A stretch of DNA of 64,000 bases, from assembly GCF_022647325.1 (NCBI RefSeq), contig NZ_CP071405.1, forward strand, positions 3,162,001 to 3,226,000, read 5' to 3'. The notes beneath the pieces are model-generated. The model was not told the origin of the DNA and did not search any database. It saw only the letters and a program-made list of their open reading frames with translations. Shown one piece after another: positions 7,853-54,899 of the stretch. Numbering within the stretch: the first letter of the stretch is position 1; the number at the start of each line of letters is the position of its first letter. Source of the DNA: Pantoea deleyi. Lineage in GTDB: Bacteria; Pseudomonadota; Gammaproteobacteria; Enterobacterales; Enterobacteriaceae. A program made the translations under genes and the position numbers.

Positions 7853-7935
7853 CCCGACCCGACTGGTAACCCTTTATCTTTTTACTTGTGCCGGGGTATT
7901 GCCCGGCATCGTACATGACAGATCAGGAAAAAAAT

Positions 7936-8760: not shown

Positions 8761-8767
8761 TTGCAGT

Positions 8768-8802
8768 GACGGGCTGGAAACCAGCCCGTCATCTTTTCTT
8801 TA
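8768..8802 (+). terminator. Intrinsic terminator after dapD
   Basis: A ten-base perfect stem (GACGGGCTGG at 8768-8777 with 8781-8790) and a 3-nt AAA loop are followed by ATCTTTTCTTT. It starts 8 nt after the dapD stop. Confidence 0.88.
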
Positions 8803-8984
8803 CATCCATTCTCAATCCACCTGCTTCGCGTTGCGAATGATCGGGTGCGTTTAGTTTTCATCCAGGTCATAATCCGCGCCAGTTAAATCCTGTCGCGCAA
8901 TGTTCATCCCGCTGCTTTATGTCTACAGTTGTCTGACGTCATGAACAAAACTGCGCGCTTCTCACTTTTGATGGAAACAACGCT

Positions 8985-9377
8985 ATGTATGACAATCTGA
9001 AAAGCTTAGGAATCAGCAATCCGGACGACATTGACCGCTACAGCCTGCGTCAGGAAGCCAACAACGACATTCTGAAAATCTACTTCCGCAAAGATAAAGG
9101 CGAGTTTTTCGCGAAGAGCGTGAAATTCAAATATCCGCGCCAGCGCAAAACAGTTGTGGCCGATCACGCGACCCAGGGCTACAAAGAAGTGCAGGAAATC
9201 AGCCCGAATCTGCGTTATGTCATCGATGAGCTGGACCAGATTTGCCAGCGTGACCAGGTTGAAGTGGATCTGAAACGTAAGATCCTGGATGACCTGCGTC
9301 ATCTGGAGAGTGTGGTCTCGCACAAGATCACTGAAATCGAGTCGGATCTGGAAAAACTGACCCGTAACGGTCGTTAA
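8985..9377 (+). CDS. yaeH: DUF3461 family protein YaeH
   Basis: A 130-residue soluble protein of unknown function, conserved in gamma-proteobacteria next to dap[35 protein letters not shown] and the [15 protein letters not shown] core match E. coli YaeH almost residue for residue, over nearly the same length (128 in E. coli). The C-terminal half (about residues 85-128) is strongly helical and charged and may form a coiled coil. No catalytic motif, signal peptide or membrane segment is visible. It has its own terminator. Confidence 0.93.
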
Positions 9378-9395
9378 TTTTTTCGCCGACAGCGG

Positions 9396-9420
9396 AGGCC
9401 AGCGTTGCTGGCCTTTTTTA
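9396..9420 (+). terminator. Intrinsic terminator after yaeH
   Basis: Stem GGCCAGC (9397-9403) with GCTGGCC (9407-9413), a GTT loop and six T residues. It lies between the convergent yaeH and cdaR genes and mainly serves yaeH. Confidence 0.88.
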
Positions 9421-9432
9421 TGTCCGCTCTCC

Positions 9433-10590: not shown

Positions 10591-10729
10591 CCATAACTCC
10601 TGATAAAGAGGGGGGAGAAACAGAATACGCATGCGCCCGGCGCAGAGCATTGTGCAATTGCACAGAGCCGGGGAGGCATTTACTGAATCTGCGGTCAGCA
10701 TCACACTCTGGCGGGGTAGAGCGCGGGCA

Positions 10730-10755
10730 CAAAAAAGGCGGACCGCAGTCCGCCT
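10730..10755 (-). terminator. Intrinsic terminator after degP
   Basis: Stem AGGCGGAC (10736-10743) pairs with GTCCGCCT (10748-10755) around a 4-nt loop; on the minus strand it runs into six T residues. It stands about 20 nt after the degP stop. Confidence 0.9.
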
Positions 10756-10774
10756 GTGTATGAGGGATAACCCG

Positions 10775-12208
10775 TTACTGCATCAGCAGATAGATGCTGC
10801 TGTCACCGCGTTTCACATTCAGCGCCAGCACGGAAGGTTTGGTATCCAGCACTTTGCGCAGTTCACCCAGGTTGGTCACCACCTGCTGGTTAACGCCCTG
10901 GATCACATCGCCCTTTTTCAGGCCGATGCGCGCTGCGGCGCTGCCCGGTTTCACATTGTCCACGCGGACGCCCTTGTCACCGGTTTCGACATTGCTGAGA
11001 TCCGCCCCTTCAATGCCGTTATAGATGGTGGCGGACTGCACTTTCGCCTGGCTGCTCTGCTGCAGCTGAACGGAGACATCGACCGGTTTGCCGTCACGCA
11101 GCAGGCCCAGCTTCAGCGTGGTGCCCACCGGCAGTGAACCCACTTCGGCGCGCAGGGATGCGAAGCTGCTCAGCGGTTTGCCGTTCATTGAAACGATGAC
11201 GTCACCCGCTTTGATGCCCGCTTTGGCCGCCGCCGAATCCGGCAGCACCTGGCTGACAAAGGCGCCGCGCTGTGCATCGACCTTCATCGCTTTTGCCAGC
11301 TCGGAGTTCAGCTCCGTACCCTGCACGCCCAGTTCGCCGCGTTTCACCTGACCAAACTCAACCATCTGAGCCGTCAGGTTTTTCACCATGTTACTCGGGA
11401 TCGCAAAGCCGATACCGATGTTGCCGCCGTCCGGCGCCAGGATGGCGGTGTTAATCCCGATCAGCTCACCGTTGAGGTTAACCAGCGCACCACCGGAGTT
11501 ACCCCGGTTGATCGCCGCATCCGTCTGGATGAAGTTTTCGTAGTTTTCCACGTTCAGGCCGCTGCGGCCCAGCGCCGAGACGATACCGGACGTCACGGTT
11601 TCGCCCAGGCCATAAGGGTTACCGATCGCCACGGTGTAGTCGCCCACGCGCAGGTTGTCGGAGTCGGCAATTTTCACCGCGGTCAGGTTTTTAGCATCTT
11701 TCAGCTGAACCAGCGCGATGTCTGAGCTGGGGTCTTTCCCGATTACTTTGGCGTCGTAACGACGGCCGTCGCTGAGCTGTACCTGAATTTTGGTCGCATT
11801 GTTGACCACGTGGTTGTTGGTAACCACATAGCCTTTTTCGGCATTAATGATGACGCCCGAACCCAGCGCCCGGAATTTTTCCTGCTGCGTATCTGGCGCA
11901 GGCGCGCCGCCGCCCTCACCGCTCTGGCACATCGGTGAGCCCTGGAACGGTGAACCGTCCTGGCAGAAAGGCGAGTTATCGCCAAAGAATTGCTGGAACT
12001 GTTGCGGCATACGCGGGGTTTTCACCGTGGTGGTCCCCTCGACGCTGATACTGACCACAGAGGGCATGACCTTCTCCAGCATGGGAGCCAGACTTGGCTG
12101 TTGCTGACTGTCGGATGAGGCCGTTTGTGCAGCAGAAACAGTAACAGGGGCGAGGGCCATGCTCAGGCTCAGAGCCAGCGCACTTAACATTAAGGTCTTT
12201 GTTTTCAT
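10775..12208 (-). CDS. degP: Periplasmic serine protease/chaperone DegP (HtrA, Do)
   Basis: Degrades or holds misfolded envelope proteins in the periplasm. The 477-residue precursor has a cleavable signal peptide (about residues 1-26, ending VSA). The trypsin-like domain carries catalytic triad H133 (NNHVV), D163 (SSDIAL) and S238 (GNSGGA), and two PDZ domains follow (about 285-375 and 390-475). The LA loop holds the cysteine pair C82/C94 seen in E. coli DegP. I chose the ATG at 12208 over one five codons upstream because it begins the signal peptide. A sigma-E type promoter lies about 80 bp upstream. Confidence 0.97.
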   Translation of the reverse strand: MKTKTLMLSALALSLSMALAPVTVSAAQTASSDSQQQPSLAPMLEKVMPSVVSISVEGTTTVKTPRMPQQFQQFFGDNSPFCQDGSPFQGSPMCQSGEGGGAPAPDTQQEKFRALGSGVIINAEKGYVVTNNHVVNNATKIQVQLSDGRRYDAKVIGKDPSSDIALVQLKDAKNLTAVKIADSDNLRVGDYTVAIGNPYGLGETVTSGIVSALGRSGLNVENYENFIQTDAAINRGNSGGALVNLNGELIGINTAILAPDGGNIGIGFAIPSNMVKNLTAQMVEFGQVKRGELGVQGTELNSELAKAMKVDAQRGAFVSQVLPDSAAAKAGIKAGDVIVSMNGKPLSSFASLRAEVGSLPVGTTLKLGLLRDGKPVDVSVQLQQSSQAKVQSATIYNGIEGADLSNVETGDKGVRVDNVKPGSAAARIGLKKGDVIQGVNQQVVTNLGELRKVLDTKPSVLALNVKRGDSSIYLLMQ

Positions 12209-12260
12209 TTTTTCGTTTCTCAATAAGATTACTGTTCAGACCATTGCTGTGGTCGAAAGG

Positions 12261-12288
12261 TGAGATAAATGTTTTAGCGCGAAGTTCC
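12261..12288 (-). promoter_or_regulatory. Sigma-E type promoter of degP
   Basis: On the minus strand GGAACTT (-35, 12282-12288) is followed after 16 bp by TCTCA (-10, 12261-12265). The -35 is a perfect match to the RpoE consensus and the E. coli degP promoter has the same GGAACTTC start. The -10 is a weaker match. This fits envelope-stress control of degP. Confidence 0.75.
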
Positions 12289-12343
12289 TTTAAAAGTTTA
12301 AGCTAAAGGTAAAAATTTATTCGCGCTCTTTACAATCGGTGGC

Positions 12344-13834
12344 TTATTCTACGGCCATCAGTCGGCGGTACTCATCCCAGGCGTAGAGGTCGGTCATTCC
12401 GCTGATATAATCCTGAATAAGCCGGAAGCGATAATAACGCTCCCACAACAGCCGTTGATATTTATGTTCCACCACCAGATTACGCATCTTATGCAGATAC
12501 GCTTTGCGATGTTTGCCGGAGAGCTTATGGAAAAGCCGGGTTTCGATCGGGTGCTGGCGCAGGAAATCTTCATTTATCAGCGTGGTAAAGGCTTCGTAAT
12601 TCAGGCGCATCAGCGGCGCGTAGATCTCCAGTAAGCCTCTGATCACCCGATAGCCCTGCAGCTCCAGCTGCTCGACTTCCGAGTGGTTAAACACCTGCTG
12701 GCGCGCGACGGTCTTGAACAGCTGCAGCAGACGCCCCTCCTCTCCCTCATCTTCCAGCAGCGCATGATTGAAACTTCCCGCGAATATGGCCGGCAGATTA
12801 TCGACAAAACGTTTCACGGCGTAGCTGACCAGTACGCTCTGAACATTTACGCGTAATGACATAAAAAATTGATCGCTGCGGCTGCGGCGTTTTTTACTGC
12901 AGGCTTCACGCCAGGCTTCGCCAATCGTCCGGCTGAAAGCGTCATTATTTTTAACCGGTCCCCAGGCTTTATTCAGAAACTCATACAAACTTTCAACATT
13001 AAAGATATCTTTTTCTACAGCATCATCCAAATCTGCAATACAGTAGGAGATATCATCGGCGGCTTCCATTATATAGGTGAGCGGAAAGCGATGATGTTCT
13101 TCCATATTGGTGGCGGCGCGCAGGTCAGCAATATAATCCTGCTCGGAGAGATAAAAGCCCGGCTTTTTCATTAATACGCTAAATTCGGCGGGCTTTTCAC
13201 CCTGCCACCAGGCGGGTGCGGTATATTTCAGGATGCAGGCGACCTGCGAATAGCTGAGATTGAGTTGCAGCAGCGTGTGCACCATGCGGATAGCCTGCGC
13301 GTTGCCCTCGAAATGGCAGAGATCCTGGCGAATCATCGCATTGAGTTGATCGAATGCCCTGCGCTGCTCCTCGCCTTCCACGCCCGCCACCAGCGGGTCC
13401 ACCAGCTCGGCGGCGAGGTGCTCTTCGAACCAGTCGTTAATGGCCGCCTCGCCAAAATGACCAAACGGCGGGTTGCCGACGTCGTGAAGCAGGCAGGCCA
13501 TCTCTATCAGGCTTTCAAACGCCCCTTCCAGCTCATCCAGGCCATACTGCGCCAGCCCGCCCTGCATCTTCAGGGTTTGCAGGATCTCTTTAGTGATGTA
13601 ACGGCCGGTCTGCTGCACCTCCAGCGAGTGCGTCAGGCGGGAGCGGACGGCGGCGTTGCGCTCCAGCGGAAAGACCTGCGTTTTCTGCTGCAGGCGGCGG
13701 ATGGCGGCGGAATTGATAATCCGTCCGCGGTCGCTCTCAAAATGACGCGTAATGTAATATTCGCCTTCCGGATCTTTACGACTGGTATAAGGGCGCGAGA
13801 AGCTGATCTTCTTCCTGAAATTGATCGCCGACAT
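12344..13834 (-). CDS. dgt: Deoxyguanosine triphosphate triphosphohydrolase
   Basis: Hydrolyses dGTP to deoxyguanosine and tripolyphosphate and so limits the dGTP pool. The 496-residue HD-domain protein shows the metal-binding residues in [10 protein letters not shown] (about residues 66-75) and [16 protein letters not shown] (about 117-132). Other conserved stretches are [13 protein letters not shown] and [13 protein letters not shown]. It ends [15 protein letters not shown], as in E. coli. It is slightly shorter than E. coli Dgt (505), with the length difference around residues 135-165. It diverges from mtnN across 92 bp. Confidence 0.96.
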
Positions 13835-13926
13835 GAATTACCCCTGACTTTTTCGTGAATTAATCCCCGGACTGCCATGTTAGACTATGCCCTAAATTTT
13901 GAATCTTTACATTAGCGGAACTCATT

Positions 13927-14625
13927 ATGAAAGCAGGCATCATCGGCGCGATGGAGCAGGAAGTTACCCTGCTGCGCGACAAAATTGAAAACCGTCAGAC
14001 GCTGTCGCTGGCCGGTTGCGAAATTTACACCGGCACCCTGCAGGGTGTTGAGGTGGCACTGCTGAAATCGGGCATTGGTAAAACCTCGGCCGCGCTGGGC
14101 ACCACGCTGCTGCTGCAGCTCTGCAAGCCCGACGTGGTGATCAACACCGGTTCGGCGGGCGGCTTAGCCGCCACTCTCAGCGTTGGCGATATCGTGGTGT
14201 CCGAAGAGGTGCGCTATCACGATGCGGACGTTACCGCGTTTGGGTATGAGCCAGGCCAGATGGCAGGTTGTCCGGCCGCCTTTGTTGCCGACAGCACGCT
14301 TGTCGCAGCGGCGGAAGCCTGCATCAAACAGCTGAACCTGAATGCCGTGCGCGGACTGGTGGTGAGTGGTGATGCCTTTATCAACGGTGCAGCGCCGCTG
14401 GCGCGTATCCGTCATCAGTTCCCGCAGGCGATTGCCGTTGAGATGGAAGCGACCGCGATCGGCCACGTCTGCCACCAGTTCCAGGTGCCGTTCGTGGTGG
14501 TGCGCGCCATCTCCGACGTCGCCGATCAGGAATCTCACCTCAGCTTCGATGAGTTCTTGAGCGTTGCGGCGAAGCAATCTTCGCTGATGGTGGAGAACCT
14601 GCTGGCGCATCTGGCGCGTGGCTAA
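13927..14625 (+). CDS. mtnN: 5'-methylthioadenosine/S-adenosylhomocysteine nucleosidase
   Basis: Cleaves methylthioadenosine and S-adenosylhomocysteine to adenine plus thioribose products, clearing by-products of methylation, polyamine and AI-2 metabolism. The 232-residue protein has the PNP/UDP fold signature: [16 protein letters not shown] (catalytic Glu near 12), [20 protein letters not shown] and the active-site ISDVADQ near residue 197. Length is that of E. coli MtnN. Its stop overlaps the GTG start of btuF by 8 bp, indicating translational coupling. It supports the polyamine genes speED found at 44.5-46.2 kb. Confidence 0.97.
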
Positions 14626-15412
14626 AACGCTGCTCTTCTGCTGGCTGCTGCTGTTCAGCGGCAGCCTGCTCGCCTCCCCGCCCCGTGTGATCACCCTCGC
14701 CCCCCACCTGACCGAACTCGCCTTTGCCGCCGGGATCACCCCGATTGCGGTCAGCGCCTGGTCCGACTATCCGCCGCAGGCGAAACAGATTGAACAGGTC
14801 GCGAACTGGCAGGGCATCCGGGCCGAACGTATTCTGCAGCTGAAGCCGGATCTGGTGCTGGCCTGGCGCGGGGGCAATCCGCAGCGTCAGATTGCGCAGC
14901 TGCAGCAGCTCGGGGTGACCGTGAAATGGATCGATCCGCAGACGCTGGATGAGATGTTCACGGCGCTGGCCGATCTGGGCCGCTGGAGCCCGGAGCCGGG
15001 CCAGGCCAGGCAGGCTGCACAGCAGCTGCGCGGGCAGGCAGACGCGCTGCGTCAGCGCTACGGTCACCTCACCGCCGTTCCGCTTTTTCTGCAGTTTGGT
15101 CAGCAGCCGCTGTTTACGGCCTCCGGTGCCACGCTGCAGGATGCGGTGATCAGGTTATGCGGCGGCAGCAACATCTTTGCAGAGAGCCGCGTCAGCTGGC
15201 CGCAGGTCAGCCGCGAGCAGGTGCTGATGCGCCATCCGCAGGCGATTGTGATCGCGGGTAGCGCCCGCCAGGCGGAGAACATCCGCGCATTCTGGCAGCC
15301 TCAGCTCAGCGTGCCGGTGATCGCCATCAACGAAGACTGGCTCAGCCGGCCAGGCCCGCGTCTGCTGCTGGCGGCCCGGCAGCTCTGTGCGGCCCTGCAT
15401 CCTGAGCACTAA
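14618..15412 (+). CDS. btuF: Periplasmic vitamin B12 binding protein
   Basis: Captures cobalamin in the periplasm and delivers it to the BtuCD ABC transporter. The 264-residue precursor starts at a GTG inside the end of mtnN and has a signal peptide (about residues 1-19, [19 protein letters not shown]). The mature part is a class III solute-binding protein: [26 protein letters not shown] and the C-terminal [16 protein letters not shown] are family hallmarks. No btuC or btuD is nearby, as in E. coli, where btuF also follows mtnN. Confidence 0.95.
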
Positions 15413-15533
15413 ATCCACAAATTGATTAAAGTCCCTACAGTTTTTGCCGTTAAACACTAACAGAGACGGACGCGCCACGTATGCTCGCCGTCCTTTCAGC
15501 GCTTATGCGCCTTTACGACACCAGGAACTGAAT

Positions 15534-15785
15534 ATGACCAGAGCACTGCTGCTGGCCATAGGGCTATCGCTCGCCGGTACGGCGATTGCGGGATCGATTA
15601 ATGGCTCTATCGGTGCCAGACTTGTTATCTATTCACGCTGTGAAATCAGCACGGCTCCGCGCCAGCCCGCGCCGCAGATAGCCTGTGGCAGACAGCCGGA
15701 TGCGCAGCCGCGCGTGACAGAGAGTCAGATTCAGAGGCAGGGAAGCGTAACGCAGCGTAATCGGCTGATTACGATCGAATGGTAA
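15534..15785 (+). CDS. Small secreted protein of unknown function, pilin-like termini
   Basis: I do not recognise this 83-residue protein. It has a clear signal peptide (MTRALLLAIGLSLAGTAIA, cleavage about residue 19) and an AGGAA ribosome site 8 nt before the ATG. The mature part of about 64 residues has two cysteines (C36, C51) that could form a disulfide, a Pro/Gln/Arg-rich middle, and ends NRLITIEW. The start of the mature part (SINGSIGARLVIYSRCEIS) and the final strand resemble the first and last strands of spore-coat-U/Csu-type pilin subunits, but the central strands are missing. It may be a shrunken pilin-like protein. It lies between btuF and erpA, a slot where I recall yadS in E. coli. 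Confidence 0.6.
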   Translation: MTRALLLAIGLSLAGTAIAGSINGSIGARLVIYSRCEISTAPRQPAPQIACGRQPDAQPRVTESQIQRQGSVTQRNRLITIEW

Positions 15786-46286: not shown

Positions 46287-47051
46287 TTATCCGGCGCTCA
46301 GCGTCAGCGTAATCCCGCGTTCGCGCAGCGTGCGGCAGACAGCCTCATCCAGCCGGCTGTCGGTCACGACATCGGTCAGATCGTCGACCGGTGACGCGCA
46401 GAACAGCGACCAGGAGCCATATTTGCTGCTGTCCGCCAGCAGCACCCGCCGGGCCGCATTGGCCAGCAGATCGTGTTTCAGCCCCGCTTTCTCCTCGGTG
46501 GGCGTGGTAATCCCGCGCTCCAGGCTCCAGGAGTTACAGCTGACAAAGGCGATATCGGGGTTGATCGTGCGCAGCAGCCGGCGGCCATGCTCACCGACGC
46601 ACGACTGGCTGGAGTCGTCGATCCGCCCGCCGATAATCGTGACTTCAATCTGCTTAAACTCAGACAGAAACAGCGCAATGTGCAGATCTGCGGTGATCAC
46701 CCGCAGCGGCAGATGGGTAAGCTGGCGCGCCAGCTCCAGCATGGTGGTGCCGGCATCCAGCACAACCGCATCCCCGGCACGCACGAAGCTGGCGGCGCAG
46801 GCCGCGATCGCCTGCTTTTCGGCCAGATTACGCTGCATCTTCTCCAGCGTGGTGGGCTGCGCAGGAATAAAACGATTCAGCGTGACGCCGCCATGGCTGC
46901 GGCTGATCACGCCCTCTTTATCCAGCTTAATCAGATCGCGCCGAATCGTGGCGGGTGAGGCGGAGATGGCGCTGACCAGTTGCTCAACAGTCACCAGATT
47001 ATGGCTTTTGAGGTAATCCATAATCTGGTCAAGACGGCTCTGTCCGTTCAT
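46287..47051 (-). CDS. DeoR/GlpR family transcriptional repressor of the sugar-acid cluster
   Basis: A 254-residue regulator with an N-terminal winged helix ([35 protein letters not shown], about residues 21-55) and the DeoR effector domain of the ribose-5-phosphate-isomerase-like fold ([30 protein letters not shown]). Such proteins usually sense a phosphorylated sugar intermediate. It is the last gene of the minus-strand operon, 6 bp after pdxA2, so it is probably autoregulated. It resembles YgbI-type repressors that sit beside DUF1537 kinases. The likely operator region is 49320-49364. Confidence 0.85.
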
Positions 47052-47057
47052 AGTTCC

Positions 47058-48038
47058 CTAAGCGAGCTGCATCGCGAGTTTAATCGAGATCGCCATGCTG
47101 TCAGACTTCGCTTTACCTGTCCAGGCGATATCAAACGCCGTGCCGTGGTCCGCCGAGGTGCGGATAAACGGCAGGCCTGCGGTGATATTGACGCCATCAT
47201 AGAAGCCCAGCAGCTTCAGCGGAATGTGCCCCTGATCGTGGTACATCGCCACCACCATGTCATACAACCCCTCCTGGCACTGCAGGAATACTGTGTCCGG
47301 CGGGCAGGGCCCGTAAACGTCCACGCCCTGCGCCTTCATCGCCTGAATCGCGGGCGCAACCGTGGTGATCTCCTCATCCCCGAACAGCCCGTTCTCCCCG
47401 GCGTGAGGATTCACCCCCGCGACCGCGATGCGCGGGGCGCTATAACCGACACGGCGCAGGAAGGTATCCGCCATGCCAATCACCGTTTTGATGCGCGTCT
47501 GGTTCAGCGTGTCGAGGAATTTGCGCAGCGCGATGTGGGTCGTGACATGGATGACTTTCAGCTTATCGGTGTAGAGCACCATCGCGTAATCTTTGGTGTC
47601 GGTCAGGTGCGCCAGCAGTTCGGTGTGACCCGGATAGAGATGTCCGGCGGCATGCATCGCCTCTTTGTTCAGCGGTGCGGTGGCAATGGCGTGAACCTCA
47701 CCCGCCAGCGCCAGTTCGGTGGCCCGTTTCACGCAGCGCCACGCCAGATCTCCCGCCGCTTTCTGCACCACGCCAGGTTTCAGGGCTGCGGGATCCGCCA
47801 GCGGCTCATCGATGACGTTGATAATGCCCGGCGCGAAGCGCGCATCCTGCACCCGATCCAGCACCCGCAATTCGGCCTGAGGCGTGATGTTCATCGCCAT
47901 AATGCGGCGCAGCGTGCTGGCACAGCCAATCACTACGGCAGGAATGCCATTCAGCTCACCTTCAGAGAGCGACTTGATAATGATTTCCGGACTGATGCCC
48001 GCCGGATCGCCCATGGTGATCGCAATAATTTTACTCAC
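47058..48038 (-). CDS. pdxA2: PdxA2-type 4-phospho-(threonate/erythronate) 3-dehydrogenase
   Basis: PdxA family NAD-dependent dehydrogenase, 326 residues. MGDPAGISPEIIIKSL at the start, TAPLNKEAMHAAGHLYPGHTELLAHL and AMYHDQGHIPLKLLGF carry the metal-binding histidines. VNITAGLPFIRTSADHGTAFDIAWTGKA is the family C-terminal signature. PdxA proper makes vitamin B6; members placed next to a DUF1537 kinase are PdxA2, which oxidises 4-phospho-threonate, with decarboxylation to dihydroxyacetone phosphate. The GTG at 48038 follows GAGGAGAAG and overlaps the kinase gene by 8 bp, indicating coupled translation. Confidence 0.87.
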   Translation of the reverse strand: MSKIIAITMGDPAGISPEIIIKSLSEGELNGIPAVVIGCASTLRRIMAMNITPQAELRVLDRVQDARFAPGIINVIDEPLADPAALKPGVVQKAAGDLAWRCVKRATELALAGEVHAIATAPLNKEAMHAAGHLYPGHTELLAHLTDTKDYAMVLYTDKLKVIHVTTHIALRKFLDTLNQTRIKTVIGMADTFLRRVGYSAPRIAVAGVNPHAGENGLFGDEEITTVAPAIQAMKAQGVDVYGPCPPDTVFLQCQEGLYDMVVAMYHDQGHIPLKLLGFYDGVNITAGLPFIRTSADHGTAFDIAWTGKAKSDSMAISIKLAMQLA

Positions 48039-49287
48039 TCGACTTCTCCTCAATAAAACCAATGGCTGCTACCAGAGTATTTGCATCACCAAAGCCACCC
48101 GCTTTGGTCATCACCGGCAGAGTAAATTCACTGTTAAGCAGAACCCCGTGCGGCACACAGCCCGCCACCAGACCCTGAATATGGAAGCCGCTGGCGCCTA
48201 GCGCCTGAGCGACGGCGATTGCCACGTCGCCTCCTGACAGATAGAGCGCATGCGGCAGCGCGGCGCGGCAGAGGCTTAAGGTCATCTCACCGAGCAAGCC
48301 GCAGATCGCCTCACCCAGTTGCTGGCGCGTCAGGCTGTGCTGCTGGCAGAGCGCCTCGATCGCGTGGCGCTGCGCGCGATGCTGGCAGGTCCGGATCACC
48401 GTATGACGACCGGCCCGCAGTGCGTCGGCCGCCTGCGCGATCCAGCGCGCCCGTTCCGGCCAGGCGGGCTGCTGAAACAGCTGAGTGATGTCCACCTCCA
48501 CGATCTCAACGGCCCGCTGCTGCTGCAGGGCGGCGATCTGCTGCTGGGCGCTGTCGCTCATCGATCCCACCACCGCCAGCACCGGCCGGGCCGGGCGAAC
48601 CGAGAGCGCCGCGCCCAGCGCATCGCTTAATCCGGCAGCCCCGACCAGCAGCGGCTTCTCGCGCAGTTGCGCCGCCGCCGCAATCAGCCGCGCCAGATCG
48701 GCCTCGTTTTCGGCATCCACCACTACCACGCCCTGCGCCGCGGCCAGCACGGCATCGAGCCGATCGCTGCGCAGCGTGGCGAGATCGATCTCCATGCCCT
48801 CGATCTGCATCTGATCGAGGACGCGGGCGCTGCGGATCGGGGTTTTGGGATCGCTGGCAAATTCGGTCTCCGTCAGCAAACGCTGATCGACCCACACGCA
48901 ACCCTGCCGCGTGGTGCGGCCCAGTCGCGGCACCGCCGGTACCACCAGCGCCAGGGTTTTGCCGCTGGCGCGCAGCGCCGCCGCCGTTTCCGCACCCACG
49001 TTGCCGCGCAGCGTAGAGTCGATCTTTTTAAACAGCCAGCCTGTCTGAAACTGTGCCGCATGGTGCTGCACCACCTGCGTGACGCGCTCAGCCGCCTGCC
49101 CGGCACTGACGGCCCGGCTGTCGGTGCTGATCACCAACACATCCGCTGCGTCCGGCACCGACGTCCCCAGGCCAAAGAGCACCTGCACGCGGGCACAGGC
49201 CTGAGCCAGCCCGCTGCCCGCATCGTTGGCACCGGTAAAGTCATCGGCGATGACCAGTACCGCGGTTTTCCATCTTGATGAGCCCAT
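48031..49287 (-). CDS. dtnK: Four-carbon acid sugar kinase (DUF1537; D-threonate kinase type)
   Basis: A 418-residue kinase of the DUF1537 family, which phosphorylates C4 sugar acids at O4. The N-terminal domain starts VLVIADDFTGANDAGSGLAQ and contains LVISTDSRA and KKIDSTLRGNVG, the substrate-binding features. The C-terminal nucleotide domain has LAVVGSMSDSAQQQI, YLSGGDVA and the final KAGGFGDANTLV. Pairing with PdxA2 is the arrangement known for D-threonate use, so dtnK is my best name; erythronate is possible. ATG 49287 is preferred over GTG 49293 because AGGAG lies 6 nt before it. First gene of the minus-strand operon. Confidence 0.82.
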   Translation of the reverse strand: MGSSRWKTAVLVIADDFTGANDAGSGLAQACARVQVLFGLGTSVPDAADVLVISTDSRAVSAGQAAERVTQVVQHHAAQFQTGWLFKKIDSTLRGNVGAETAAALRASGKTLALVVPAVPRLGRTTRQGCVWVDQRLLTETEFASDPKTPIRSARVLDQMQIEGMEIDLATLRSDRLDAVLAAAQGVVVVDAENEADLARLIAAAAQLREKPLLVGAAGLSDALGAALSVRPARPVLAVVGSMSDSAQQQIAALQQQRAVEIVEVDITQLFQQPAWPERARWIAQAADALRAGRHTVIRTCQHRAQRHAIEALCQQHSLTRQQLGEAICGLLGEMTLSLCRAALPHALYLSGGDVAIAVAQALGASGFHIQGLVAGCVPHGVLLNSEFTLPVMTKAGGFGDANTLVAAIGFIEEKSSE

Positions 49288-49319
49288 CCTCACTCCTGTC
49301 AGGCGACTGCCATTTGCAT

Positions 49320-49364
49320 TTGATTATATTCAATCATGATTGATTATATGTGAGCAAGTTCAAA
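49320..49364. promoter_or_regulatory. Divergent control region: 10-bp direct repeats, palindrome and CRP-like site
   Basis: TTGATTATAT occurs at 49320-49329 and 49340-49349, exactly 20 bp apart. A perfect 14-bp palindrome TCAATCATGATTGA (49330-49343) lies between and partly over the second copy. Next to it TGTGA-n6-TCAAA (49349-49364) matches the CRP consensus at 9 of 10 core bases. It is placed between the two operons and is the natural binding site for the DeoR-type repressor and CRP. Confidence 0.6.
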
Positions 49365-49475
49365 TTAATCGAAATCGATATGCCTTATAAATTTAGCCAC
49401 ACAGAGTGACTGAATTCGCATTGTGCTGAGCAAAATTAATCATGTGCTCCGCCGCGACAGTAAAGAGGGGATGAA

Positions 49476-50627
49476 ATGAACATTAACAGCACGGTGATCA
49501 GCGGCTATCAGGCGCTGAACGACATGGGCTATCTGCTGCAGGGCGTCTCGGCAGCGGTCGTGGTCACGGACCGAAACATTGAGGCGATTCCGGCGGTGCA
49601 GGCGCTGATGGGGCAACTGCGGGATCGGATTCCGCAGCTCAGCCTGGTCAACAGCGTCCCGCCAGAGCCGAGCCAGCACGATGTTGCTGCGATCCTGGCG
49701 GCGCTTCCCCACCGGCAGGCCGATATGGTGATCGGCATCGGCGGTGGCAGCGTTCTGGATGTGGCGAAGCTGCTCTCGGTACTCTGCCTGGACGCGGCGC
49801 CGTCGCTCGACGCCCTGCTGGCGGGTGAAAAACCGCAGCGCCGCACCCGCTCGCTGCTGATCCCGACCACCGCCGGAACCGGTTCTGAAGCCACCCCCAA
49901 TGCGATTCTGGCTATCCCAGAGAAGGAGACCAAAGTCGGTATTATTTCCCCGGTGATGCTGCCGGATGTGGTGGCGCTGGTGCCGGAACTCACCACCAGC
50001 ATGCCCGCCCACATCGCCTCTTCGACCGGCATTGATGCGCTCTGCCATCTGATTGAGTGCTTCACGGCCAACGTCGCCAATCCGGTTAGCGACAACTATG
50101 CACTCACCGGCATGAAGAAGCTGTTCGCCAGTCTCGAAACCACGCTGCGCGAGCCAGACAATTTACAGGCGCGGCTGGAGATGCTCTGGGCCTCTTACTA
50201 CGGCGGCGCGGCCATCGCCCATGCCGGTACCCATCTGGTGCACGCCCTCTCCTATCCGCTCGGCGGCAAATATCATCTGCCTCACGGCGTCGCCAACGCC
50301 ATTCTGCTGGCGCCCTGCATGCGATTCGTCCGCCCGGCCGCGGTGAGCAAGTTCGCGCAGGCCTATGATCTGCTGCCCGATGCCGACAGCCGTTTAAGCG
50401 ACGACGAGAAATCCCATGCGCTGGTGGAGTACTTCACCGCACTGGTTGAGCGGCTGCAGCTGCCTGCCAGTCTCGAAGCGCTGGGCATCAGCCCGGATCA
50501 CCTGCCCTATCTGGTGGAAGCAGCACTCGACGTTCAGCGCCTGATGAAAAATGTGCCGATGAGTGTCAGCGCCGACGATGTGCGCGCTATCTATCTCACC
50601 CTGTTTCCTTCCCGCCAGGCGAATTGA
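49476..50627 (+). CDS. Iron-containing alcohol dehydrogenase
   Basis: A 383-residue group III (Fe-ADH) protein. The NAD-binding motif IGIGGGSVLDVAK is near residue 86, TTAGTGSEATPNAI follows, and the metal ligands are in STGIDALCHLIECF and YPLGGKYHLPHGVANAI (Asp and three His). Members interconvert alcohols and aldehydes or lactaldehydes. The substrate here should come from the pathway of the cluster, perhaps a C3/C4 aldehyde or hydroxy acid. First gene of the plus-strand operon, with GAGGGGATGAA before the ATG; 8 bp to the next gene. Confidence 0.88.
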   Translation: MNINSTVISGYQALNDMGYLLQGVSAAVVVTDRNIEAIPAVQALMGQLRDRIPQLSLVNSVPPEPSQHDVAAILAALPHRQADMVIGIGGGSVLDVAKLLSVLCLDAAPSLDALLAGEKPQRRTRSLLIPTTAGTGSEATPNAILAIPEKETKVGIISPVMLPDVVALVPELTTSMPAHIASSTGIDALCHLIECFTANVANPVSDNYALTGMKKLFASLETTLREPDNLQARLEMLWASYYGGAAIAHAGTHLVHALSYPLGGKYHLPHGVANAILLAPCMRFVRPAAVSKFAQAYDLLPDADSRLSDDEKSHALVEYFTALVERLQLPASLEALGISPDHLPYLVEAALDVQRLMKNVPMSVSADDVRAIYLTLFPSRQAN

Positions 50628-50635
50628 GGATTGTT

Positions 50636-51520
50636 ATGAATAAGAAAATAGAGGGCATTCTGACGGCCATCGTCACCCCTTTCGACCGGGAGGGGGCCTT
50701 TGACCCGGTGAAGCAGCGCGAGCAGGTCAGACGGCAGATCGACGCCGGTAACGGGATCTTCTGCGGCGGCACCAACGGCGAATTCTTTGTGCTGAACGAG
50801 CAGGAGAAGATTGCCGTCACCACGACCTGCGTCGATGAAGTCAACGGCCGGGTGCCGGTAGTGGCGCATATCGGAGAGATTTCGACCCGCGAAACCATCC
50901 GGCTCGGCCAGCAGATTGGCCGCCTGGGCGTGGATGCGGTGTCCGCGATCACGCCGTGGTTTGTTCCGCTGAAACAGCAGGAGCTGATTGACCACTATCA
51001 GCGCGTGGCGGATGCACTCACGGTGCCGCTGTTCCTCTACAACATCCCGGCACGCACCGGCAACACCCTGCAGCCCGACACGGTGCGCACGCTGGCGGCG
51101 CACCCGAACATCATCGGCATCAAAGACTCTGCCGGCAGCTATGAGAGCCTGAGCGGATTTCTGCAGGCCACTGCCGACTGCGAAGGTTTCGATGTCCTGA
51201 ACGGTCCGGATTCGCTGATCCATCAGGGATTCGTTGACGGCTGTTCTGCGTCGATTTCCGGGCTGGCTAATGTGGCACCCGACGCGATCAACGCGATCTG
51301 GGCGCGCTTCAGCGCCGGCGACATCGCCGGTTCGCATCAGGCGCAGGAGAGCGTGACCGGCCTGCGCACCGCGCTCTACAGCATCGGTTTTTCACCGGCC
51401 GCCGTGAAAAAAGCGGTCAGCCTGCAGGGCTTTGAGGTCGGTGAAAGTCGCTATGCGGTGCAGTTCAGCGCCGAAGAGCAGCAGCAGATTCGTCAAATCG
51501 TGAACCACTACCTGCAATAA
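50636..51520 (+). CDS. DapA/NanA superfamily aldolase or dehydratase
   Basis: A 294-residue class I TIM-barrel lyase. GGTNGEFFVL (GTTGE-type carboxylate loop, about 44-53), the catalytic Tyr in FLYNIPARTGN (about 135-140) and the Schiff-base Lys in IIGIKDSAG (about 162-168) are present. The superfamily includes dihydrodipicolinate synthase, N-acetylneuraminate lyase, 2-keto-3-deoxygluconate aldolase and ketodeoxyglucarate dehydratase. A biosynthetic DapA role is unlikely in a catabolic operon. ATG 50636 has GAGGATTGTT upstream. Its exact substrate cannot be read from the sequence. Confidence 0.85.
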   Translation: MNKKIEGILTAIVTPFDREGAFDPVKQREQVRRQIDAGNGIFCGGTNGEFFVLNEQEKIAVTTTCVDEVNGRVPVVAHIGEISTRETIRLGQQIGRLGVDAVSAITPWFVPLKQQELIDHYQRVADALTVPLFLYNIPARTGNTLQPDTVRTLAAHPNIIGIKDSAGSYESLSGFLQATADCEGFDVLNGPDSLIHQGFVDGCSASISGLANVAPDAINAIWARFSAGDIAGSHQAQESVTGLRTALYSIGFSPAAVKKAVSLQGFEVGESRYAVQFSAEEQQQIRQIVNHYLQ

Positions 51521-51564
51521 CGTCCATCGCCTTTGCACACTATCGGTCAGATGAGAACGAACCT

Positions 51565-51577
51565 GATGGTCGCCATC
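51565..51577 (+). other. Small hairpin between the aldolase and symporter genes
   Basis: Five-base stem GATGG (51565-51569) with CCATC (51573-51577), TCG loop, inside the only sizeable gap (79 bp) of the plus-strand operon. It could tune expression of the symporter relative to the enzymes, but it is short. Confidence 0.3.
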
Positions 51578-51599
51578 TGCCAGAACAATCGAGGTCATG

Positions 51600-53015
51600 A
51601 TGAAATCATTTTCAACTGAGAGCACCTTACTGATCGTCGGCATGGTGGTCGCCTATATTCTGTTCACTACCTGGCTGACCTGGCGGCTGCGCAGTAAAAC
51701 CAGCGGCGACTTTATGGAAGGCTCGCGCGCCATGCCCGCCTTTATTGTCGGCATCATGCTGATGTCCGAGTATATCGGGGCCAAATCCACCATCGGCACC
51801 GCACAGGCGGCCTTTGAGGATGGCTTCGCCGCCTCCTGGTCGGTCATTGGCGCAGCGATTGGTTTTCCGCTGTTTGGCCTGATTCTGGTCAAACGCATTT
51901 ATAACACCGGGAAGATCACGATCTCCGGCGCGATCGCCGAGAAATATGGCAGCTCGACCAAAAATATCATCTCGCTGATTATGATCTATGCGCTGCTGCT
52001 GGTGAACGTCGGTAACTACATCAGCGGCGCGGCGGCGATCTCCACCGTGTTAAAAGTCGATCTGACCCAGGCGGCCTTTATCACGGCGGTGGTCAGTACC
52101 TTCTACTTCGCGTTTGGCGGCATGAAAGGCGTCGCCTGGGTGACGCTGCTGCACAGCGCCATCAAGTACGCCGGGATCCTGATTATTCTCTATGTGGCGC
52201 TGAAGATGACCGGTGGCGTCGCGCCGATGATGGAGAAAATGCCGGCGTTCTACTGGACCTGGGATGGGCATGTCGGGGCCAGCACCATTGTCGCCTGGCT
52301 GATCGGTACCGTGGGATCGATCTTCTGTACCCAGTTTGTGATCCAGGCGATCTCCTCCACCAAAGATGTGAAGTCCGCGAAACGCGCAACCTGGATCGCC
52401 TTTATCTTCTGTCTGCCTATCGGCCTGGCGATGGCGCTGATTGGCGTGGCGGCGAAGTTTGCTCATCCCGATATCAAAAGCCTCTATGCGCTGCCGGTGT
52501 TTCTGCAGGATATGTCGCCGTGGCTGGCCGGGATCGTTACCACTTCGCTGGTGGCCTCGATCTTCGTCAGCGTCGGCACCGTCGCCCTGGCTATCGCCTC
52601 GCTGGTCGTGAAAGATTTCTATGTGCCCTACCGCAAACCCACTCCGGAGCGCGAATTTAAGGTCACGCGCTGGATCTCGATCGGTATCGGCTTCTTTCCG
52701 CTGCTGTTTGTCCTGTTCTTCCCGGAAGTATTGAAGCTCTCCTTCTTTACCCGCGCGATTCGCCTGTCGATCACCGTGGTGGCCATCATGGCGTTCTATC
52801 TGCCATGGTTTAAGAGCACGCGTGGCGCAAATGCCGGTCTGATTGGCGCCTGTCTGGTCACCTCCGTCTGGTTCCTGATGGGTAACCCTTTCGGTATCGA
52901 CAATATGTATGTGGCGCTGATTACCCCGGCCATCATTATGGTGATTGACCGCTGCATTCCGTCACGTCAGTCTCAGCCTCAACCGCAACACAATGCACAA
53001 AAAAGTGGAGCCTAA
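51600..53015 (+). CDS. Sodium:solute symporter (SSS family)
   Basis: A 471-residue inner-membrane protein with about 12-13 hydrophobic helices. LTWRLRSKTSGDFMEGSRAMPAFIVG near the N-terminus, EYIGAKSTIGTAQAAFEDG and the GxxGSIFCTQFVIQAISSTKDVKSAKRATW region are typical of SSS transporters (LeuT fold). It probably imports the organic-acid or sugar-acid substrate of the cluster with sodium. Of two adjacent ATGs, 51600 has the better spacing (5 nt) to GAGG. One base separates its stop from the next ATG, so it is translationally linked to the BNR gene. Confidence 0.88.
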   Translation: MKSFSTESTLLIVGMVVAYILFTTWLTWRLRSKTSGDFMEGSRAMPAFIVGIMLMSEYIGAKSTIGTAQAAFEDGFAASWSVIGAAIGFPLFGLILVKRIYNTGKITISGAIAEKYGSSTKNIISLIMIYALLLVNVGNYISGAAAISTVLKVDLTQAAFITAVVSTFYFAFGGMKGVAWVTLLHSAIKYAGILIILYVALKMTGGVAPMMEKMPAFYWTWDGHVGASTIVAWLIGTVGSIFCTQFVIQAISSTKDVKSAKRATWIAFIFCLPIGLAMALIGVAAKFAHPDIKSLYALPVFLQDMSPWLAGIVTTSLVASIFVSVGTVALAIASLVVKDFYVPYRKPTPEREFKVTRWISIGIGFFPLLFVLFFPEVLKLSFFTRAIRLSITVVAIMAFYLPWFKSTRGANAGLIGACLVTSVWFLMGNPFGIDNMYVALITPAIIMVIDRCIPSRQSQPQPQHNAQKSGA

Positions 53016-53016
53016 T

Positions 53017-54219
53017 ATGACTCAGGAAACCGTCACCGCAGAACGCAACGGCCAGCTTGCGCCGCACCCGCAGGATAGCGCGCAGCAGGTTGCGATGCTG
53101 CCTTCCCCCTGCCCGCAGAACCACGCAGCTAACCTGCTGCCGCTGCCCGATGGCGATCTGCTCTGCGTCTGGTTTGGCGGCACACAGGAGGGGATCGCCG
53201 ATATCTCTGTCTGGTGCTCACGACTGAAAAAGGGCAGCGATCGCTGGAGTGACGCAGAGAAACTCTCTGACGATCCGGGCCGATCCGAACAGAACCCGGT
53301 GCTGTTCCTCGATCCTGATCAGGTGCTGTGGCTGCTCTGGACAGCGCAGAAGTCGGGCAATCAGGACACCGCGATCGTCCGCTATCGCCAGTCTCACGAT
53401 CTGGGCCAGAGCTGGGGCGAAATCCGCACCCTGCTGGATAAACCCGGCACCTTTATTCGCCAGCCGATCGTGGTGCTGCCCAACGGCAACTGGCTGCTGC
53501 CGGTCTTTTACTGCCTGACGCGGCCCGGAGAGAAATGGGTCGGCAGCTATGACGTCAGCGCGGTCAAAATCTCGGAAGATAAAGGCCGCAGCTGGCGCGA
53601 CGTCAGCGTGCCTGACAGCACCGGCTGCGTGCACATGAACGTCACGCTGCTGGAGGATGGCTCCCTGCTGGCGCTCTACCGCAGCCGCTGGGCCGACCAT
53701 ATCTATCAGAGCCGCTCATTCGATCAGGGTGAGAGCTGGAGCGCGCCGGAACCGCTGTCGCTGCCCAACAATAACTCCTCGATTCAGGTCACCACGCTGC
53801 GCAACGGTCATCTGGCGCTGGTGTTCAACGCCATGAGCGCAGAGGGCGCTAAAGAGCGGCGGCTGTCGCTCTATGACGAGATCGAAGATGATGAAGAGGC
53901 GGCTGAAGGTGACGTGGCGGTCGCTGCCGAACCGGTGGTGCAGAGCGGTCGCACCGCCTTCTGGGGCGCACCACGCGCACCAATGACGCTGGCGATCTCT
54001 ACGGATGGCGGTAAAAGCTGGCCACTGCAGCGCAATCTGGACGAGGGCGATGGCTACTGCATGACCAATAACTCCCAGCAGAAGCTGAACCGTGAATTCT
54101 CCTACCCCAGCATCAAGCAGGGGGTGAACGGCGAACTGCATATCGCCTACACCTGGTATCGTCAGGCGATTAAGTATGTGCGGGTCGGGGAGTCCTGGGT
54201 ACAGGGAGGTGACGCGTGA
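53017..54219 (+). CDS. BNR/Asp-box (sialidase-fold) protein, probably cytoplasmic
   Basis: A 400-residue protein with four Asp-box repeats of the S-x-D-x-G-x-x-W type: SHDLGQSW, SEDKGRSW, SFDQGESW and STDGGKSW (near residues 130, 189, 231 and 328), the mark of a six-bladed sialidase-like propeller. There is no signal peptide or membrane helix, unlike secreted sialidases. An acidic insertion (DEIEDDEEAAEGD, about 287-299) is odd. The start at 53017 follows GGAG at 7 nt. It lies 1 bp after the symporter and overlaps the SDR by 4 bp, so it likely acts on the imported compound, as a hydrolase, isomerase or lyase. True sialidase activity is doubtful. Confidence 0.8.
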   Translation: MTQETVTAERNGQLAPHPQDSAQQVAMLPSPCPQNHAANLLPLPDGDLLCVWFGGTQEGIADISVWCSRLKKGSDRWSDAEKLSDDPGRSEQNPVLFLDPDQVLWLLWTAQKSGNQDTAIVRYRQSHDLGQSWGEIRTLLDKPGTFIRQPIVVLPNGNWLLPVFYCLTRPGEKWVGSYDVSAVKISEDKGRSWRDVSVPDSTGCVHMNVTLLEDGSLLALYRSRWADHIYQSRSFDQGESWSAPEPLSLPNNNSSIQVTTLRNGHLALVFNAMSAEGAKERRLSLYDEIEDDEEAAEGDVAVAAEPVVQSGRTAFWGAPRAPMTLAISTDGGKSWPLQRNLDEGDGYCMTNNSQQKLNREFSYPSIKQGVNGELHIAYTWYRQAIKYVRVGESWVQGGDA

Positions 54220-54899
54220 TCGCACGGATGGCGCTGGTGACCGGAGCCAGCTCCGGCATCGGCCAGGCGATTGCGGAGCGCCTGCTCACGGCGGGCTGGC
54301 AGGTAACCGGCCTGAGCCGTTCGGCCATCAACCGGACCGAAAGCGGCTGGCAGAGTCACCAGGTCGATATCAGCGACAGCGCAGCATTGCAGGCATTACT
54401 GGAGCGTCTGCCCGTGCCGCAGGCGGTGGTTCACGCAGCAGGCATGATGCAGGCCGCGCCGCTGGGAGAGCTGGACGGCGAGGCCAGCGCACGCCTGTGG
54501 CGGCTGCATGTTGCCGCCGCTGAACAGCTGGCGAATCACTTTGCGCCGCAGATGCACGCGGGCGGCAGGATCGTACTGCTGGGCAGTCGCACGTCAGGCG
54601 GCGCGGCGGGCCGCAGTCAGTATGTGGCGACCAAGTCGGCGATGATCGGCATGGTCCGCAGCTGGGCGGCAGAGCTGGCGCCGCGCGGCATCACGGCGAA
54701 CATCGTGGCGCCCGGTGCCACCGAAACGCCGATGCTGCAGCAGCCAGGCCGGGCCAGTTCACCGCCCCGCCTGCCGCCGATCGGCCGCTACATTCAGCCG
54801 GAGGAGGTCGCCGGACTGGTCGATTTCCTGCTCTCTCCGGCGGCGGCGGCGATCACCGGCCAGCAGCTGGTGATGTGCGGCGGCGCGTCGCTGAGTTAA
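54216..54899 (+). CDS. Short-chain dehydrogenase/reductase
   Basis: A 227-residue Rossmann-fold oxidoreductase with the cofactor motif TGASSGIGQAI (residues 9-19), HAAG (near 72-75), active-site Ser (LLGSRTSGG), YxxxK as YVATKSA and a family C-terminus GQQLVMCGGASLS. It starts with GTG in a GTGA overlap with the BNR gene. Last gene of the plus-strand catabolic operon; it probably oxidises a hydroxyl of the sugar-acid substrate. Arg after the beta-2 strand (LSRSA) hints at NADP but is not conclusive. Confidence 0.87.
   Translation: MIARMALVTGASSGIGQAIAERLLTAGWQVTGLSRSAINRTESGWQSHQVDISDSAALQALLERLPVPQAVVHAAGMMQAAPLGELDGEASARLWRLHVAAAEQLANHFAPQMHAGGRIVLLGSRTSGGAAGRSQYVATKSAMIGMVRSWAAELAPRGITANIVAPGATETPMLQQPGRASSPPRLPPIGRYIQPEEVAGLVDFLLSPAAAAITGQQLVMCGGASLS

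What the first reader, a model, noticed from the sequence alone, without database searches (positions are those of the whole stretch)
46287..54899. Eight-gene accessory catabolic cluster of unassigned substrate between speD and yacL
Seen: two divergent, tightly packed operons. Minus: DUF1537 kinase, PdxA2, DeoR. Plus: Fe-ADH, DapA-family lyase, sodium symporter, leaderless BNR protein, SDR, with overlaps or gaps of 1-8 bp at most junctions. Known: DUF1537 kinase plus PdxA2 converts D-threonate-type acids to dihydroxyacetone phosphate. Inference: the plus arm imports a larger sugar acid or glycoside. The SDR and BNR protein prepare it, the DapA-type enzyme splits off pyruvate or removes water, and the Fe-ADH or SDR turns the C4 aldehyde into the C4 acid for the minus arm. 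I know of no described pathway combining these families, and the BNR protein inside such an operon is especially unexplained. Its position between genes I recall as close neighbours in E. coli suggests insertion.
Basis: partly seen in the sequence, partly recalled or inferred. Interest (0 to 1): 0.78.

Follow-up and report, generated by a model that had tools for sequence, protein, structure and literature searches.

The report
Likely pathway for a rare pectin sugar
This is a real, widely shared set of bacterial genes that most likely lets plant-associated and gut bacteria eat an unusual seven-carbon acid sugar, probably the one called Dha found in the plant pectin RG-II, by splitting it into two pieces the cell already knows how to burn; the food itself is inferred and still has to be tested.

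Summary
In detail: eight intact genes, DeoR-PdxA2-D-threonate kinase facing Fe-ADH-DapA-symporter-sialidase-like BNR-SDR. It looks like one pathway. Kinase, PdxA2, Fe-ADH, DapA and BNR occur together in 59 of 80 named loci and, as divergent subfamilies, in Methylobacterium and unnamed distant genomes. In E. coli the counts nearly coincide: kinase 1044, lyase 1043, BNR 1043 of 5426 genomes. Recent insertion is not supported: several families have the cluster near yacL-acnB. The E. coli copy is in print, without a substrate (PMC12928451). [quoted passage not shown] retro-aldol cleavage to pyruvate plus a C4 semialdehyde acid; reduction to D-threonate; kinase and PdxA2 to DHAP. Support: D-lyxo gives D-threonate, the lyase keeps a DapA-like arginine, most clusters carry a NanQ-like gene, some have dicarboxylate-type transporters. 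Against: distant lyases lack that arginine; PdxA2 occurs without BNR in 4 of 9 order-level genomes; no RG-II enzyme was among the neighbours scanned. Substrate and BNR step are inferred.

The parts
46287..47051 (-). DeoR-family regulator, predicted repressor of both arms
   Evidence: PF00455/PF08220; a relative is present in 58 of 80 named loci
47058..48038 (-). PdxA2, D-threonate 4-phosphate dehydrogenase (gives DHAP + CO2 + NADH)
   Evidence: NF002891 equivalog 666 bits, cut-off 583; GTG start read at 48038
48031..49293 (-). DUF1537-type D-threonate kinase (DtnK)
   Evidence: NF047819 equivalog 518 bits, cut-off 450; PF07005/PF17042
49294..49475 (.). shared divergent promoter; TGATTATATTCAATCA element at 49321-49336 and TGATTATATGTGAGCAA at 49341-49357, candidate DeoR operator and possibly CRP-like site
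   Evidence: repeats; 9-mer TGATTATAT in 60 of 63 and TGTGAGCAA in 57 of 63 divergent intergenic stretches (62 loci plus window; no shuffled control); binding not shown
49476..50627 (+). iron-containing alcohol dehydrogenase; proposed reductase of the C4 semialdehyde acid to D-threonate
   Evidence: PF00465/PF25137; highest NCBIfam scores are ErcA, 4-hydroxybutyrate dehydrogenase and lactaldehyde reductase, all below cut-off
50636..51520 (+). DapA/NanA-superfamily lyase; proposed retro-aldolase releasing pyruvate
   Evidence: PF00701; Lys, Tyr and GTNGE kept, plus Arg of YNIPARTG aligned to the Arg of E. coli DapA YNVPSRTG; a separate gene, 79% identical to E. coli DapA, lies elsewhere in the genome
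51597..53015 (+). sodium:solute symporter (SSS), proposed importer
   Evidence: PF00474; other clusters have SLC13/CitMHS, TRAP or ABC genes instead, and some an MFS gene
53017..54219 (+). leaderless sialidase-fold BNR protein; proposed ketosidase (or ring-form converting enzyme) for the ulosaric acid
54216..54899 (+). short-chain dehydrogenase/reductase, role unassigned and apparently dispensable
   Evidence: PF13561/PF00106; no relative found in 8 of 59 complete core clusters

Best explanation
[quoted passage not shown] Steps: (1) the SSS symporter imports free Dha or a small Dha glycoside (inferred). (2) The cytoplasmic sialidase-fold BNR protein frees or converts the ketoside (inferred, weakest step); in most complete clusters a NanQ-like protein then speeds ring opening (inferred from homology; that gene is missing in the window and its nearest relatives). 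(3) The DapA-type lyase cleaves it by retro-aldol into pyruvate and 2,3-dihydroxy-4-oxobutanoate, held through its carboxylate by a DapA-like arginine (inferred from residues). (4) The Fe-ADH reduces the aldehyde with NADH to D-threonate (inferred). (5) The D-threonate kinase makes D-threonate 4-phosphate and (6) PdxA2 oxidises and decarboxylates it to DHAP, regenerating the NADH (by curated family models). Net: Dha + ATP gives pyruvate + DHAP + CO2, redox neutral. The DeoR protein represses both arms through the shared divergent promoter (inferred).
For: One unit: core with BNR in 59 of 80 loci; E. coli BNR in 1043, DapA in 1043, dtnK in 1044 of 5426 genomes, and 1043 covering at least 80% of the whole 9.4-kb query (counts, the genome lists were not intersected); in 60 Pantoea-genus genomes BNR and DapA together in 42, BNR alone in 1 (decayed), DapA alone in 6, neither in 11, though 23 of the 42 pairs lie over 10 kb apart or on different contigs; the set made of divergent subfamilies in Methylobacterium and in unnamed distant genomes. 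C4 end product: D-threonate kinase and PdxA2 over curated cut-offs. Carbon count: pyruvate plus a C4 acid means a C7 2-keto-3-deoxy acid. Stereochemistry: of 8 stereoisomers only D-lyxo and D-xylo give D-threonate, and the natural RG-II sugar is D-lyxo (PMC8218411 and PMC12282258 passages). Lyase: YNIPARTG in 62 of 67 ORFs that matched it best, with the Arg aligned to that of E. coli DapA, whose acceptor is also a C4 semialdehyde acid (recalled), while NanA has YNIPALSG and YagE YNFPALTG. A nan-like set: sialidase fold, NanQ/YhcH homologue in 52 of 59 core clusters. SLC13 and TRAP transporters in some clusters. Plant sialyltransferase-like GT29 enzymes are proposed to handle Kdo or Dha (PMC11288761 passage), so sialic-like machinery for these sugars is plausible.
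Against: No substrate was tested. No RG-II hydrolase was among the 30 neighbouring proteins of relatives that I scanned with Pfam; most flanking genes were not scanned. The BNR has no leader, yet Dha is bound in a polymer outside the cell, so either a small glycoside is imported or its role is something else. In the BNR the residue aligned with the catalytic Glu of sialidases is His206, so it is not an ordinary sialidase. Three of 67 ORFs matching the lyase lacked the motif, one a different paralogue. Kinases of distant clusters (L004, L121, L127, L128) score under the D-threonate cut-off. The minus arm occurs without the BNR: 4 of 9 order-level genomes with a close PdxA2; the lyase occurs without the BNR in 6 of 60 Pantoea-genus genomes and on a P. 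vagans plasmid; PdxA2 without the lyase in 2 of 50. SDR has no assigned step. Relatedness of the genomes inflates the co-occurrence statistic.
Confidence: 0.5

Rival explanations
1. The substrate is a C7 3-deoxy-2-ulosonic acid (or its glycoside), not a diacid: the lyase gives pyruvate and D-threose, and Fe-ADH or SDR plus the BNR beta-propeller as a lactonase oxidise the aldose to D-threonate.
Against: No aldehyde dehydrogenase among the eight genes; SDR not found in 8 of 59; the conserved lyase Arg would have no carboxylate to hold; I recall no common natural 3-deoxy-heptulosonic acid of that configuration.
Confidence: 0.12
2. The plus arm handles a glycoside or another conjugate in which D-threonate is already present or made by a different route; the DapA-type enzyme acts as a dehydratase or another aldolase and the BNR as the hydrolase.
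For: The DapA superfamily includes dehydratases, and 5-dehydro-4-deoxyglucarate dehydratase models score on this protein, below cut-off.
Against: Catalytic Lys, Tyr and GTNGE typical of the pyruvate-binding site are kept; the lyase and PdxA2 are hard to separate: of 48 Pantoea-genus genomes with the lyase all have PdxA2, 47 within 5 kb (broken copies counted).
Confidence: 0.15
3. A sialic-acid or Kdo-like nonulosonate or octulosonate pathway.
For: Sialidase fold, NanA-like lyase and NanQ-like protein together.
Against: Cleavage of Kdo or Neu5Ac would give C5 or C6 sugars, not a C4 acid; no NanE or NanK is annotated in the E. coli cluster; the lyase has Arg where NanA has Leu.
Confidence: 0.07
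4. Vitamin B6 related: kinase and PdxA2 feed 4-phosphohydroxythreonine to pyridoxal phosphate, as suggested for the E. coli region.
For: PMC12928451 gives this reading (passage); STM0162 can phosphorylate 4-hydroxythreonine (PMC10971088 passage).
Against: It explains none of lyase, Fe-ADH, symporter, BNR and anomerase-like protein; PdxA2 is over the D-threonate cut-off; uptake systems vary while the enzymes stay.
Confidence: 0.04

Closest known systems
Salmonella D-threonate module (DUF1537 kinase DtnK + PdxA2)
   Same: Kinase and PdxA2 of the same NCBIfam equivalogs; the chemistry from D-threonate to DHAP is the known part.
   Different: The known module starts from free D-threonate (recalled; PMC10971088 passage names DtnK); here five more genes plausibly make D-threonate from a larger sugar acid.
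nan (sialic acid) operon of E. coli: NanT, NanQ, NanA
   Same: Transporter, NanQ-type protein (in relatives) and DapA/NanA-superfamily lyase; a sialidase-fold protein beside them.
   Different: No NanE or NanK annotated in the E. coli cluster; lyase has the DapA-like Arg; the aldehyde product goes towards a C4 acid kinase.
E. coli nagE-glnS genomic region GR 6 and the S. meliloti sialidase-dapA-adh cluster (PMC12928451)
   Same: Same gene set in the table passage (its ORF list has no TerC entry in the part I saw); in E. coli it lies between glnS and nagE.
   Different: In print it is listed under sugar metabolism and tied to B6; the passages I read propose no larger substrate.
GH33 sialidases and RG-II Dha-hydrolase of Bacteroides (BT1020 region)
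   Different: No leader; His206 in place of the catalytic Glu. Relation to the Bacteroides Dha-hydrolase domain not tested; its activity is recalled (source paper not held).

Membership tests
D-threonate catabolic module | DUF1537 kinase of the D-threonate equivalog | tested here: met
   NF047819 518 bits against 450
D-threonate catabolic module | D-threonate 4-phosphate dehydrogenase (PdxA2) | tested here: met
   NF002891 666 bits against 583
D-threonate catabolic module | growth on D-threonate through these genes | not testable with these tools
   needs culture
DapA/NanA (class I aldolase) superfamily | Schiff-base Lys, Tyr and G[TS]xGE loop | tested here: met
   invariant K162, Y134, G47-E48 in alignment A3 of 12 sequences (numbering from the Asn at 50639)
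4-hydroxy-tetrahydrodipicolinate synthase (lysine DapA) | equivalog score and being the genome's lysine gene | tested here: not met
   TIGR00674 183 against 206 bits; separate gene with 79% identity to E. coli DapA elsewhere
N-acetylneuraminate lyase | NanA equivalog cut-off | tested here: not met
   TIGR00683 126 against 382 bits; NF003164 157 against 281
GH33 sialidase | sialidase-type beta-propeller fold | tested here: met
GH33 sialidase | catalytic Glu partner of the nucleophilic Tyr | tested here: not met
   His206 aligns with the Glu of the AEAQ stretch of NanC, Arg222 with an Arg (my reading of the profile alignment, a 20-bit stretch); that this Glu is catalytic is recalled
GH33 sialidase | arginine triad and nucleophilic Tyr | tested here: inconclusive
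   Arg222; Arg320, Tyr363 and His36 in place of the first Arg are my own mapping from recalled motifs; all invariant in 18 sequences
GH33 sialidase | hydrolysis of sialosides | not testable with these tools
   needs assay
nan-type sialic acid operon | NanE and NanK for ManNAc | tested here: not met
   not among the annotated genes of the E. coli cluster or the eight of the window
RG-II Dha hydrolase family (GH143) | sequence or structure match to the characterised domain | not tested
   no reference sequence or paper at hand

The most novel reading that the evidence does not exclude
The first bacterial pathway for Dha, a sugar of plant RG-II: a new Dha lyase (DapA-like, with a pocket for a C4 semialdehyde acid) and a new cytoplasmic sialidase-fold enzyme make D-threonate, which gives the D-threonate pathway a natural source. 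It is spread over Enterobacterales, Orbaceae, Actinobacillus and Methylobacterium, and is carried by about a fifth of the complete E. coli genomes searched.
Probability: 0.42. Interest if true: 0.78.

Novelty: new variant of a known kind. Interest (0 to 1): 0.62.

Why it matters
D-threonate has a known breakdown route but, to my knowledge, no known natural source, and no breakdown route for Dha came up in my searches of the held library (listings and passages). If right, both gaps close at once with one cheap assay. It would also give a function to a region in 1043 of 5426 complete E. coli genomes that in print is only called sugar metabolism or D-threonate metabolism (PMC12928451, PMC9125672; passages; that the latter's region 14 is this cluster is my inference), and link gut and plant bacteria to the leftovers of pectin digestion.

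Tried and rejected
Recent insertion between speD and yacL: rejected, because relatives in several families have the cluster near yacL-acnB. DapA as the lysine enzyme: rejected. Nonulosonate, Kdo and vitamin B6 readings: kept as weak rivals. Looking for RG-II or pectin genes beside the cluster: 30 neighbouring proteins from a handful of relatives were scanned and no RG-II hydrolase was among them; a KduI gene is in the window's genome but far off on the same contig, which says little. Papers: no held paper combined DUF1537, dihydrodipicolinate synthase and threonate, nor RG-II, Dha and GH143; the PNAS 2016 DUF1537 paper and the Nature 2017 RG-II paper are not held, so what I say of them is recalled. 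No GH143 entry was among the fold matches shown, which shows nothing. A model of the lyase was not made; model coordinates cannot be read here, so no pocket was inspected. Only 7 of the 16 order-level genomes with a BNR match and all 7 phylum-level genomes outside the window's family with E up to 1e-30 had their surroundings fetched. The 80 named loci are the best 80 of 293 candidates, so they lean to close relatives. Relationship thresholds were 30% identity for the kinase and 38% for the rest, so a divergent gene counts as missing.
Full report
OBSERVATION. The eight genes are there, intact and packed as described. Corrections: PdxA2 starts at a GTG at 48038 and overlaps the kinase by 8 bp; DapA starts at 50636; the DapA-symporter gap is 76 bp; the arms diverge from a 182-bp intergenic stretch. 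The window's genome is held without a name; the nearest named BNR relatives are Pantoea (95% identity).

ONE PATHWAY RATHER THAN TWO NEIGHBOURS. Among the best 80 of 293 candidate loci encoding the BNR protein in named genomes, 59 hold kinase, PdxA2, Fe-ADH and DapA in the fetched stretch as well; 5 miss one of the four; 16 hold two or fewer, 13 of them Pantoea in which a symporter-BNR-SDR module stands apart, 2 short Rahnella stretches and 1 Burkholderiaceae contig. A NanQ/YhcH-like gene follows the BNR in 52 of the 59; the 7 without it are the Pantoea relatives nearest the window (L034-L040); L041, L052 and the stand-alone modules of L042-L048, L050, L051 and L053 lack it too. In 60 genomes of the genus, DapA occurs in 48 and always with PdxA2 (47 within 5 kb; in the last, G254, the two are on different contigs); PdxA2 occurs in 50, so twice without DapA; BNR occurs in 43 (two decayed), 42 of them with DapA, although in 23 of the 42 the BNR is more than 10 kb away or on another contig (broken copies counted). 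Fisher's exact p is 3.8e-7, inflated by relatedness. Against a strict bond: at order level 9 of 247 genomes have a close PdxA2 (E up to 1e-100), and 4 of these 9 (G238, G218, G229, G241) have no BNR match, so the minus arm also stands alone. In E. coli the whole cluster, with a TerC-family and an SLC13 permease gene and no SSS or SDR, lies between glnS and nagE in the annotated example; 1043 of 5426 genomes cover at least 80% of a 9.4-kb query, and single-gene searches give BNR 1043, lyase 1043, kinase 1044 (counts compared, lists not intersected).

MADE OF OTHER PARTS ELSEWHERE. All seven genomes outside the window's family found at phylum level with E up to 1e-30 (11 of 398 genomes in all) were fetched: six of seven have PdxA, Fe-ADH and DapA relatives near the BNR, five also show a kinase (26-40% identity), and one (L126) has only symporter-BNR-SDR. 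Four of them (family f69, unnamed; I take them for rhizobia-like from size and from the printed S. meliloti cluster) use another lyase subfamily and, in three, a GntR-like regulator (tblastn to the Methylobacterium protein, which I call GntR by reading it); two were shown to have ABC transporter genes (L128, L131). L132 has a TRAP system. Methylobacterium aquaticum has GntR-like gene-kinase-PdxA-Fe-ADH-DapA-SSS-BNR-SDR on a plasmid. Within the order, contexts were fetched for 7 of the 16 genomes with any match: G206, G211 and G242 show the set; G119 has a TRAP gene and BNR on a short contig, with a YhcH-like ORF by my reading only; G222 BNR and an Fe-ADH piece; G059 and G112 carry distant BNR proteins without the core, G112 beside a DapA-like gene. 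The uptake system changes (SSS, SLC13/CitMHS, TRAP, ABC, MFS) while the enzymes stay, as expected for one catabolic route.

SITE AND REGULATION. 15 of 80 loci have speD on one side and yacL or acnB on the other; 12 more have one flank in view, 10 of them complete or near-complete clusters a few genes from yacL-acnB. The genera include Pantoea, Erwinia, Winslowiella, Mixta, Rahnella, Serratia, Symbiopectobacterium, Pectobacterium and Dickeya. So this is an old place, not a fresh insertion. The divergent promoter carries TGATTATATTCAATCA and TGATTATATGTGAGCAA; the 9-mers TGATTATAT and TGTGAGCAA recur in 60 and 57 of 63 stretches (no shuffled control, related sequences). This suggests a DeoR operator and perhaps a CRP-like site serving both arms.

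WHAT IT DOES. Kinase and PdxA2 are over curated cut-offs for the D-threonate steps. The lyase keeps the pyruvate-binding features of its superfamily, and the genome has a separate DapA. If pyruvate leaves and a C4 acid remains, the substrate is a C7 2-keto-3-deoxy acid, and if the C4 piece is already an acid, one with a second carboxylate. The lyase's YNIPARTG (62 of 67 best-matching ORFs; YNIPVRTG and YNIPARSG in one each, three without) puts an Arg where E. coli DapA has YNVPSRTG and NanA has YNIPALSG; in DapA this Arg is known to hold the carboxylate of aspartate semialdehyde, a C4 semialdehyde acid (recalled). The Actinobacillus lyase and that of L121 keep the Arg at lower identity; L127 has Lys; the f69, L132 and Methylobacterium type has neither, which counts against a universal rule. 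Enumerating stereoisomers, D-lyxo and D-xylo 3-deoxy-2-heptulosaric acids give D-threonate; [quoted passage not shown] Reduction by the Fe-ADH and oxidation by PdxA2 would balance NADH, which would explain an apparently wasteful reduction.

WHAT IS IN PRINT. PMC12928451 (passages) lists the E. coli nagE-glnS region with these genes, cites a similar S. meliloti cluster from Thiaville 2016 (not read), and connects kinase and PdxA2 to vitamin B6. PMC9125672 (passages) calls a colibactin-associated region D-threonate metabolism. PMC8809351 (passage) lists a four-carbon acid sugar kinase gene in a Dickeya table. None of the passages read says what larger sugar the cluster acts on. My searches of the held library (listings, with passages of some) found no described Dha catabolic pathway; papers not held cannot be excluded.

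VERDICT. A real, conserved, still unassigned pathway: confident that it is one route from a larger acid sugar to pyruvate and DHAP through D-threonate (about 0.85), about even that the sugar is Dha.

Noticed in passing
L133 (G112:C6) 6747-11381: A different arrangement: a distant BNR protein beside another DapA-like gene, a large isomerase-like ORF and a TctC-like solute-binding protein (the last two by my reading of the translation, not scanned), so sialidase-fold protein plus lyase may be a wider theme.
   Followed up: no
L001 (Pantoea vagans plasmid, NZ_CP014127.2) 7933-15666: The DeoR-PdxA2-kinase and Fe-ADH-DapA core is followed by a 2-hydroxyacid dehydrogenase and an MFS transporter near the D-galactonate family (both below NCBIfam cut-offs) instead of symporter-BNR-SDR; Erwinia loci such as L049 and the more distant L127 have both modules.
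   Followed up: partly
L134 9219-9977, L072 9207-9968: A TerC-family membrane protein gene sits between lyase and BNR, where the symporter is elsewhere, in E. coli and Klebsiella oxytoca; its role is unexplained.
   Followed up: no
L041 7434-8477: A putative cyclase (PF04199) and an extra MFS gene sit inside the cluster of Pantoea sp. A4.
   Followed up: no
G285 and G299 (unnamed Pantoea-genus genomes): BNR genes in pieces with stops, and in G299 the lyase gene in two pieces too: pathway decay.
   Followed up: no
window, between BNR (ends 54219) and SDR (starts 54216): The NanQ/YhcH-like gene of 52 of 59 complete clusters is missing here and in the window's nearest Pantoea relatives (L034-L040).
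   Followed up: partly
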